Positions 1,311 through 2,258 of a stretch of DNA of 6,141 nt are shown here, piece after piece. Positions within the stretch are counted from its first letter, which is position 1. Each line of letters starts with the position of its first letter. The notes beneath the pieces are model-generated. The model did no database searches. It had not been told where the DNA came from and worked only from the letters and a program-made list of their open reading frames with translations. This DNA is from an uncultured Arenimonas sp. (GTDB lineage: Bacteria > Pseudomonadota > Gammaproteobacteria > Xanthomonadales > Xanthomonadaceae). The translations under genes and the position numbers were made by a program. The stretch spans positions 1 to 6,141 of the forward strand of contig CAMPHE010000118.1 of assembly GCA_946885815.1 (NCBI GenBank), written 5' to 3'.

Positions 1311-2206
1311 CGGGAAACTCCGGGGGCGGCTGTCGGGGCCGCGGACAGGTCGGAAAGGAAATCGAGCACGGCGCCGGCGAACGCGTCGTTGTCGTCGCCT
1401 GCGACCATATGCGTCGCGTCGGGAAGTTGCACGTGGCGCGCGTGCGGCGCCAGTTCCATGAAGTGGTCCACCGTGCCGGCGGTGACCAGGTCGCTGCGGC
1501 CGCCGCTGACCAGCAGCAGCGGTACGTCGAGGGCGCGGCAGGCGGCTTCCACCGGAGCCTGCAGCGCGGCGGTCGTGGGGATGAATTCGGTCAGCAACCG
1601 CGGGTCCCAGTGCCACGCGAGGCGGCCGTCGGCGCGCGGCACCAGCAGGTGTTCGAGACGGGACGGCGACTTGCGCGCGCGGCGATGCGGCAGGTACACG
1701 GCGATGCGTTCGGCCGCGTGCTCGTACGACTCGAAGCCGTCGGGATGCGCGCTCATGAAACCCAGGATGCGCTCGACCCCCGATGCTTCCCAGCGGGGAG
1801 TGATGTCGGCCAGTACCAGTGCCGACCAGGGCCGATGCCGCGCCTGCGCGACCAGCCCGATCAGCCCGCTCATCGACGCGCCGACCAGCACCGGGGCCGG
1901 GCCGAGGGCGCCGGCCGCCGCCACGGCGTCGGCGACGAACTGCTCGCCGGAGTAGGGCGACGCGGCCGGATTGCGCCCGGAACCGCCGTGCCCGCGCAGA
2001 TCCCACGCGAGGCTGGCGTGCCCGGCGGCGGCGAGCCGTCGCTGCGTCGCCGACCACGCGTGGCGCGTCTGGCCGAAGCCATGGCCGAGCAGCACGCCGG
2101 GACCGCCGCCGTCATGGCGGTCGGCCGCCAGGACGATTCCGTCCCCGGTGGTGATCGTGAAGGCCCCGGCGACGGGCGTCGGGACACGGGCGGAAACTGT
2201 TTCCAT
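1307..2206 (-). CDS. Alpha/beta hydrolase, first gene of the fadE operon
   Basis: A 299-residue cytoplasmic alpha/beta-hydrolase-fold protein with no signal peptide or membrane segment. The fold landmarks appear in order: oxyanion-region motif GHGFGQ (41-46), strand and turn DLRGHGGSGR (69-78), nucleophile elbow VGASMSG with Ser111 (108-114), acidic residue Asp239 in GGRSDLV, and His266 in DATHM. The triad Ser111-Asp239-His266 is complete and correctly spaced. The elbow is G-x-S-x-S-G rather than the textbook G-x-S-x-G, with Ser in the second small position. The substrate cannot be read from sequence: esterase, lipase, lactonase or thioesterase are all possible. Its stop overlaps the fadE start (ATGA), so the two are cotranscribed and probably coupled, which suggests a lipid or acyl-ester substrate feeding or protecting beta-oxidation (inference). 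There is no Shine-Dalgarno sequence before the ATG, and the promoter -10 ends seven bases upstream, so the mRNA may be leaderless. Confidence 0.93.
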   Translation of the reverse strand: METVSARVPTPVAGAFTITTGDGIVLAADRHDGGGPGVLLGHGFGQTRHAWSATQRRLAAAGHASLAWDLRGHGGSGRNPAASPYSGEQFVADAVAAAGALGPAPVLVGASMSGLIGLVAQARHRPWSALVLADITPRWEASGVERILGFMSAHPDGFESYEHAAERIAVYLPHRRARKSPSRLEHLLVPRADGRLAWHWDPRLLTEFIPTTAALQAPVEAACRALDVPLLLVSGGRSDLVTAGTVDHFMELAPHARHVQLPDATHMVAGDDNDAFAGAVLDFLSDLSAAPTAAPGVSR

Positions 2207-2220
2207 ACGGCGGAGTATTG
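2203..2220. promoter_or_regulatory. Candidate TetR operator, site 1 (over -10 and start codon)
   Basis: An interrupted palindrome reads CCATAC-GGCGGA-GTATTG on the plus strand, which is CAATAC-N6-GTATGG on the minus strand. Its 12 arm bases are identical to those of site 2 (2241-2258), while the six central bases differ at four positions. It covers the -10 hexamer of the hydrolase promoter, and the hydrolase ATG lies inside the GTATGG arm. A bound repressor would block RNA polymerase directly. Assignment to the adjacent TetR protein is inference from the divergent gene arrangement. Confidence 0.6.
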
Positions 2221-2243
2221 GTGTCGCCGAGGTGGCCTGTCAA
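2214..2243 (-). promoter_or_regulatory. Sigma70-type promoter of the hydrolase-fadE operon
   Basis: Reading the minus strand, a perfect -35 TTGACA (2243-2238) is followed after 18 bases by a -10 AATACT (2219-2214), which matches TATAAT at four of six positions. The expected transcription start, about seven bases on, falls at the hydrolase ATG (2206). It is overlapped at both ends by the two copies of the CAATAC-N6-GTATGG palindrome. Confidence 0.65.
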
Positions 2244-2258
2244 TACCGCAGCGTATGG
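2241..2258. promoter_or_regulatory. Candidate TetR operator, site 2 (touching -35)
   Basis: CAATAC-CGCAGC-GTATGG is a near-palindrome with five of six arm pairs matching. It is the second copy of the site at 2203-2220, in opposite orientation, with centres 38 bp apart. Its left arm shares three bases with the -35 hexamer of the hydrolase promoter. Conservation of the arms with divergence of spacer and flanks is what an operator pair would show. Confidence 0.6.

What the first reader, a model, noticed from the sequence alone, without database searches (positions are those of the whole stretch)
2203..2258. Twin CAATAC-N6-GTATGG operator clamps the hydrolase-fadE promoter
Two 18-bp near-palindromes in opposite orientation have identical 12-base arms, while spacers match at only two of six bases and flanks are unrelated. 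One covers the -10 and start codon, the other touches a perfect TTGACA -35, and the centres are 38 bp apart. These AT-containing hexamers are rare in GC-rich DNA, and the sites sit opposite a divergent TetR gene. I infer a repressor-binding pair controlling beta-oxidation, not matching the PsrA motif as I recall it.
Basis: partly seen in the sequence, partly recalled or inferred. Interest (0 to 1): 0.72.

Follow-up and report, generated by a model that had tools for sequence, protein, structure and literature searches.

The report
Twin operator of fatty-acid repressor TfmR
Two matching 18-base repressor-binding sites sit over the switch of a fat-burning operon; they are very probably the landing sites of a known fatty-acid-sensing repressor (TfmR), and recur next to that repressor's gene in most relatives examined.

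Summary
The TetR protein is the orthologue of TfmR, shown by others in Xanthomonas citri to repress this operon, bind fadH and let go with long-chain fatty acids (PMC6637906); the sections I read give no operator. The palindrome CMATACN6GTATKG lies upstream of tfmR in 81 of 81 close loci (<=2 mismatches, 65 perfect) and, perfect, in 55 of 58 homologues sampled across the order (to 40% identity). In two misses tfmR is unlinked, and the genome's only perfect site is at the hydrolase-fadE operon. Sites recur at fadH, DUF4442, FadI-like thiolase and GNAT promoters. The start codon lies inside the operator in 54 of 56 hydrolase loci, suggesting a leaderless mRNA. The -35 site is optional (42 of 81). 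A known repressor with a newly defined operator and wider predicted regulon: moderate interest.

The parts
2203..2220 (-). Operator site 1, CAATACTCCGCCGTATGG: covers the -10-like element and the start codon of the hydrolase
   Evidence: 0 mismatches; found in 81 of 81 close loci at <=2 mismatches, 65 perfect
2241..2258 (+). Operator site 2, CAATACCGCAGCGTATGG: shares TTG with the -35 hexamer
   Evidence: 0 mismatches; site 2 present in 42 of 81 close loci at +36/37/38
2238..2243 (-). -35 hexamer TTGACA of the hydrolase-fadE promoter
   Evidence: Read; TTGAC found ahead of site 1 in 79 of 81 loci
2214..2219 (-). -10-like AATACT, spacer 18 (inferred; in relatives often CATACT)
   Evidence: Read; alignment of loci; no transcript mapped
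2204..2206 (-). ATG start codon of the hydrolase inside site 1; predicted 5' end lies at or about one nt before it (leaderless, inferred)
   Evidence: in-frame ATG at this place in 54 of 56 hydrolase-bearing loci
1307..2206 (-). Alpha/beta hydrolase (mhpC/bioH-like), first gene of the operon
   Evidence: Abhydrolase_6 E 3.5e-14
3..1310 (-). FadE-type acyl-CoA dehydrogenase, second gene, runs off the window
   Evidence: Acyl-CoA_dh_N E 2.9e-20, also _M and _1
2331..2915 (+). TetR-family repressor, TfmR orthologue
   Evidence: TetR_N E 9.4e-14; relatives in Xanthomonas and Stenotrophomonas at 72-77% identity, with fadE and mostly the hydrolase next door; TetR fold

Best explanation
The two sites are the operators of the divergently encoded TetR repressor, the orthologue of TfmR. 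A TfmR dimer on site 1 covers the -10 element, the presumed transcription start and the start codon; a second dimer on site 2 covers the edge of the -35. Together they keep RNA polymerase off the hydrolase-fadE promoter until long-chain fatty acids bind TfmR and release it, so that acyl chains are oxidised only when present. Shown here: the sites, their conservation with tfmR and with the target operon, recurrence at other acyl-CoA genes. Shown by others in X. citri: repression, promoter binding, release by long-chain fatty acids. Inferred: that this TfmR touches exactly these bases, that both sites act together, and that the mRNA is leaderless.
For: Site 1 in 81 of 81 tfmR loci including the window at <=2 mismatches (65 perfect, 14 with one, 2 with two). 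Perfect site upstream of 55 of 58 TfmR homologues drawn across the order, to 40% identity, with TKGSFYWH of the HTH unchanged in 58 of 58. Two of the three misses (G069, G114) have tfmR away from the operon, and the only perfect site in each genome lies at the hydrolase-fadE operon. Not start-codon conservation alone: 25 loci lack the hydrolase by tblastn, yet 23 of 25 keep site 1 at <=1 mismatch. Not promoter conservation alone: the outer arm of site 2, 9 bases beyond the -35, is CCATAC in 41 and CCGTAC in 1 of 42 two-site loci, while of 37 one-site loci that still have TTGAC none has it within one mismatch and 2 within two. Same palindrome (<=2 mismatches) at 14 of 27 fadH and 19 of 27 DUF4442 promoters, against 1 of 513 and 0 of 348 control windows; without the genomes whose site was known beforehand, 13 of 26 and 16 of 24. 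fadH is a published TfmR target in X. citri (PMC6637906). Among 20 genomes of the wider class (10 picked with sites, 10 without), a TfmR-like protein was found in 5, all in the ten with sites; in 4 of 5 the site lies at or just upstream of its start. Published: 50- to 100-fold higher mhpC/fadE promoter activity in a tfmR deletion, KD about 87 nM for the promoter fragment, release by C14 to C20 fatty acids.
Against: No binding to these bases has been measured. G076 (L208) has TfmR (66% identity), hydrolase and fadE but no perfect site in its genome. Site 2 is missing in 39 of 81 loci, so twin binding is not needed everywhere; L073 has the inner GTA before its -35 without the outer arm. The motif also stands beside more distant TetR proteins with a like recognition helix (for instance L287, 37% identity, near an acyl-CoA dehydrogenase gene), so a paralogue could read some sites. 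X. citri TfmR bound the XAC2014/fadB/fadA promoter in vitro but not in vivo, and no <=2-mismatch site is found in the 3297 bp held for the presumed X. euvesicatoria counterpart (L172). In X. oryzae TfmR is reported to bind and activate rpfG and hrpX; I did not test those promoters. 13 of 27 fadH and 8 of 27 DUF4442 promoters lack a <=2-mismatch site.
Confidence: 0.93

Rival explanations
1. The arms are conserved only because they contain the -10, the -35 and the start codon of a leaderless promoter; there is no operator.
For: Site 1 does contain the -10-like bases and the ATG; site 2 shares TTG with the -35.
Against: Site 1 stays (<=1 mismatch) in 23 of 25 loci without the hydrolase. The outer arm of site 2 lies outside any promoter element and is kept or lost as a whole. 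The same palindrome recurs at unlinked fadH, DUF4442, FadI-like and GNAT promoters. 110 perfect sites against 5 for the reversed pattern in 64 genomes.
Confidence: 0.03
2. The sites belong to another regulator, for example a TetR paralogue with the same recognition helix, and TfmR only happens to be adjacent.
For: Motif also beside distant TetR homologues at 31-40% identity; half-sites can be shared between TetR paralogues (recalled).
Against: Perfect site with TfmR in 55 of 58 loci through 40% identity; published direct binding of TfmR to this promoter in X. citri (PMC6637906), whose relative X. euvesicatoria carries both sites (L051).
Confidence: 0.04
3. Site 2 mainly serves autorepression of tfmR, site 1 the operon.
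For: Site 2 lies between the operon promoter and tfmR, 72 bp before the tfmR start in the window; divergent TetR genes often regulate themselves (PMC6637906, section read).
Against: In X. citri the tfmR promoter did not change in the tfmR deletion, and the Xanthomonas loci fetched have both sites. In 42 of 42 two-site loci the distance of site 2 follows the -35 spacer (36/37/38 with 15/16/17), because it shares TTG with the operon's -35.
Confidence: 0.1

Closest known systems
TfmR of Xanthomonas citri (XAC3052) and its mhpC/fadE promoter (PMC6637906)
   Same: Divergent TetR gene, hydrolase-fadE operon, fadH as second target; the Xanthomonas loci fetched carry the two sites 36 bp apart
   Different: The sections I read give no operator sequence, no twin architecture and no DUF4442, FadI-like or GNAT targets; spacing is 36 there and 38 in the window; the window's nearest named relatives are Arenimonas
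PsrA (P. aeruginosa) and Smlt2053/XAC2014 (PMC10304680)
   Same: TetR repressors of beta-oxidation genes released by long-chain fatty acids
   Different: Operator G/CAAAC(N2-4)GTTTG/C, absent from the window; a 2026 review gives TfmR and PsrA 18% identity and calls them not close orthologues (PMC13104628, passage)
FadP of betaproteobacteria (named in PMC5343134)
   Same: TetR-family regulator predicted for fatty-acid degradation (passages)
   Different: Reported there as unique to betaproteobacteria among the taxa studied; its motif was not available to me (the founding paper is not held), so orthology was not tested
FadR of Bacillus (TetR family; PDB 3whc with stearoyl-CoA, 5gpc)
   Different: 17% identity; many other TetR proteins score as high or higher, so the fold says nothing on the ligand

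Membership tests
TfmR orthologue | TetR N-terminal HTH domain and TetR fold | tested here: met
TfmR orthologue | Divergent from hydrolase (mhpC) and fadE | tested here: met
   hydrolase and fadE beside tfmR in most Xanthomonas and Stenotrophomonas loci fetched, fadE alone in L027
TfmR orthologue | Sequence orthology to Xanthomonas/Stenotrophomonas TfmR | tested here: met
   74% to X. euvesicatoria L051, 73% to S. maltophilia D457 L064, with synteny; XAC3052 itself was not fetched
TfmR orthologue | Direct repression of the operon and release by long-chain fatty acids | not testable with these tools
   Published for X. citri only, as far as I read
TfmR regulon | Operator also at fadH, the second published target | tested here: met
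   <=2 mismatches at 14 of 27 fadH promoters, 3 mismatches at 5 more, among them X. euvesicatoria L132 CCGTACGCAAGCGTATCC; 8 of 27 have 4 or 5
PsrA operator | G/CAAAC(N2-4)GTTTG/C palindrome | tested here: not met
   No N2 to N4 form anywhere in the window
Named NCBIfam TetR equivalogs (BetI, AcuR, KstR, Bacillus FadR and others) | Score over the curated cut-off | tested here: not met
   15 families match, best 33.3 bits, each far below its cut-off
Leaderless promoter | Transcript 5' end at the start codon | not testable with these tools
   Predicted from -10 to ATG spacing and the in-frame ATG in 54 of 56 loci

The most novel reading that the evidence does not exclude
CMATAC-N6-GTATKG is the ancestral operator of a master repressor of acyl-CoA breakdown in this order. 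It is fused with a leaderless start site, so that repressor contacts, -10, transcription start, start codon and second amino acid (codon forced to begin with G by GTATGG) are locked together, and the regulon reaches beyond beta-oxidation: DUF4442 and 4HBT_3 thioesterase-like genes, a FadI-like thiolase, and in Rhodanobacter-like genomes a GNAT acetyltransferase, which would tie fatty-acid sensing to acetyl transfer.
Probability: 0.45. Interest if true: 0.58.

Novelty: new member of a known kind. Interest (0 to 1): 0.43.

Why it matters
TfmR links long-chain fatty acids to catabolism and, in plant-associated xanthomonads, to other traits by a route its discoverers call elusive (PMC6637906). A defined operator turns that question into a genome scan: sites can be listed, mutated and footprinted. 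It also predicts targets (DUF4442, FadI-like thiolase, GNAT) and gives a clear example of an operator built over a start codon, with one optional partner site over the -35, and of HTH and operator staying fixed while the whole protein falls to 40% identity.

Tried and rejected
Chance origin: rejected. Start-codon/promoter conservation alone: rejected. PsrA operator: rejected for the window. Scan of the window's own genome: impossible, none held. First promoter scan was wrong because '-' loci were not turned round; one search replaces it. Its permuted-palindrome control (100 random arms, <=2 mismatches) has a mean of 0.33 (fadH) and 0.35 (DUF4442) promoters but reaches 6 and 10 for arms close to the true one. 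In one search permuted arms reach the observed counts at their maximum; one search shows why: over all 180 arrangements of the arm, four near-copies (MCATAC, CCATAM, CAMTAC, CAATMC) also reach 55 of 58 at <=2 mismatches, and the mean of all others than the true arm is 3.7 of 58. FadI-like thiolase as a family-wide target: at E<=1e-110 it was found in 4 of 30 genomes, and those 4 were in the list because a site had been seen there, so that count is circular. A PsrA-operon check gave no <=2-mismatch TfmR site in 4 of 5 held stretches and one 1-mismatch site in S. maltophilia (L173). In 4 order genomes without a TfmR match three perfect patterns were found, all inside long open frames, read as chance. 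Class-wide background: 47 forward sites in 75 genomes against 21 for the reversed pattern (my sum; G003 and G065 belong to the order), so single perfect matches there mean little. Paper search with the site's letters returned nothing relevant among the 15 listed; motif words in the two TfmR papers point to no operator. A protein search (6555 hits among 7998 scored, 120 listed) added only close homologues and was not used further. The FastTree tree carries warnings of long branches.

Full report
THE SEQUENCE. One search finds CAATAC-N6-GTATGG twice without mismatch: 2203-2220 (minus) and 2241-2258 (plus). Read: centres 38 bp apart, opposite orientation, spacers alike at 2 of 6 bases. On the minus strand TTGACA lies at 2243-2238; the best -10-like hexamer is AATACT at 2219-2214 (spacer 18, 4 of 6 to TATAAT), and the ATG of the 299-codon hydrolase frame is at 2206-2204, so a start about 7 nt after the -10 falls on the ATG or one base before it: a leaderless mRNA, inferred. 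The -10 and ATG are inside site 1; site 2 shares TTG with the -35.

WHAT IS KNOWN. PMC6637906 (abstract, sections 8-10, 13, 25 and passages) describes TfmR (XAC3052) of X. citri: divergent from mhpC/fadE, 50- to 100-fold higher promoter activity in the deletion, EMSA and ChIP binding, KD about 87 nM, release by C14 and longer fatty acids but not C6 or C8, binding at fadH in vitro and in vivo, no change of its own promoter. The word motif occurs there twice, for other things, and no operator is given in what I read. PMC11173191 (abstract, outline, section 7, and a search for motif words with no hit) reports binding at rpfG and hrpX. PMC10304680 (abstract, section 7, passages) treats a PsrA orthologue, a different regulator. 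Searches for TfmR, for locus tags, for the site's letters and for Xanthomonadales/TetR/operator/palindrome terms listed no description of this operator; supplements were not open to me.

CONSERVATION NEAR. The search for related loci gave 80 loci (best 80 of 584). With the window, site 1 is found in 81 of 81 at <=2 mismatches: 65 perfect, 14 with one, 2 with two. Site 2 is present in 42 of 81, at +36 (26 loci), +37 (8) or +38 (8), with a -35 spacer of 15, 16 or 17 respectively, so its place goes with the -35. Of 39 loci without site 2, 37 still have TTGAC; only L073 has GTA before it, and none has an outer arm within one mismatch of CCATAC (2 within two). 25 of 81 loci have no hydrolase by tblastn; 23 of these keep site 1 with <=1 mismatch. 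Site 2 goes with the hydrolase (40 of 56 against 2 of 25), a link I did not separate from kinship. In 54 of 56 hydrolase loci the ATG inside site 1 opens a long frame; the other two read ACG. On a FastTree tree of 139 TfmR rows one-site versus two-site needs 7 changes.

CONSERVATION FAR. In 61 genomes drawn across the order, 57 have TfmR at E<=1e-20 (58 loci; G003 and G056 also lie behind loci). 55 of 58 have a perfect site within about 330 bp upstream, down to 40% identity, and TKGSFYWH is unchanged in 58 of 58. The misses: in G069 and G114 tfmR is not beside the operon, and the only perfect site in each genome is at the hydrolase-fadE operon elsewhere. G076 has no perfect site and instead CAAACATTCGTTTG, a PsrA-type palindrome, before the hydrolase. 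In the wider class, 20 of the 75 genomes were tested for TfmR (10 picked with sites, 10 without): 5 have one at E<=1e-15, all among the site-bearing ten, and in 4 of 5 the site is at or just upstream of the gene's start; the fifth site is on another contig. One of these regulators (L287, 37%) stands by an acyl-CoA dehydrogenase gene and may be a paralogue, so the site may belong to a recognition-helix group wider than TfmR.

OTHER SITES. In 64 genomes (18 + 46 of the 80) the exact pattern occurs 110 times, by my count; 80 are at tfmR, 30 elsewhere; the reversed pattern occurs 5 times. Of the 30, tblastn puts 9 before DUF4442, 4 before a GNAT gene, 3 before fadH, 1 before a 4HBT_3 acyl-CoA thioesterase-like gene and 13 before none of the six proteins tried; among the 13 are a PhaR gene and several places inside frames. 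Of 20 off-locus places hand-picked in deeper genomes, 7 lie before a FadI-like thiolase, 4 GNAT, 2 fadH, 2 a GMC oxidoreductase, 5 others, one of them (L259) the relocated hydrolase operon. By gene rather than by site, fadH was found in 28 of 30 genomes (one broken, dropped) and DUF4442 in 27 of 30; 14 of 27 and 19 of 27 promoters hold the palindrome at <=2 mismatches, against 1 of 513 and 0 of 348 windows of equal length elsewhere in the same loci. In one genome for fadH (G013) and three for DUF4442 (G008, G013, G018) a site had been found first; without them 13 of 26 and 16 of 24.

MECHANISM. Best reading: TfmR dimers on site 1 (nearly always present) and site 2 (often) exclude RNA polymerase; long-chain fatty acids release them. 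A centre distance of 36-38 bp is about 3.5 turns, so the two dimers would sit on roughly opposite faces of the DNA (inference); the spacing follows the promoter rather than a rule of contact between dimers. Weak points are listed in the Against line. Interest is moderate: regulator, target and ligand class were known; operator, its start-codon overlap and the wider target list were not met in the papers searched.

Noticed in passing
L208:1310-1323: A TfmR-bearing genome (G076) without any perfect TfmR operator has a perfect PsrA-type palindrome CAAACATTCGTTTG before the hydrolase; such palindromes also lie in the intergenic regions of L207, L209 and L240 (4 of 58 order loci, 1 of 80 close loci, L034). 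Possible operator swap or double control.
   Followed up: partly
L100, L180, L181, L182, L269-L272: In 8 genomes (4 Rhodanobacter, 4 hand-picked unnamed order genomes) a perfect operator has its centre 9-18 bp before a GNAT acetyltransferase gene.
   Followed up: partly
L103, L106, L186, L188, L189, L191 and others: DUF4442, a domain of unknown function, is a recurrent predicted TfmR target (19 of 27 promoters); only two held papers mention the name.
   Followed up: partly
L276, L277: A GMC oxidoreductase gene has the operator centre 5-6 bp before its start in two genomes, next to a gene that looks like an efflux transporter (my reading of the protein).
   Followed up: no
window 2192-2204: 13-bp palindrome GGAAACTGTTTCC over the first codons of the hydrolase; not seen by eye in the relatives printed, probably chance.
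   Followed up: partly
window 3089-4837: GTP-type PEP carboxykinase gene downstream of tfmR; what looks like the same gene follows tfmR in the distant locus L284 (by eye).
   Followed up: no
window 4878-5964: ECF sigma factor gene followed by an overlapping small frame without Pfam match that may be its partner.
   Followed up: no
L287: A TetR homologue at 37% identity with the same operator stands near an acyl-CoA dehydrogenase gene that resembles isovaleryl-CoA dehydrogenase (recalled likeness), hinting that the recognition-helix group reaches branched-chain breakdown.
   Followed up: no
L262:1442-1478: Two perfect operators only 19 bp apart before a gene with a signal-peptide-like start in G074.
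   Followed up: no
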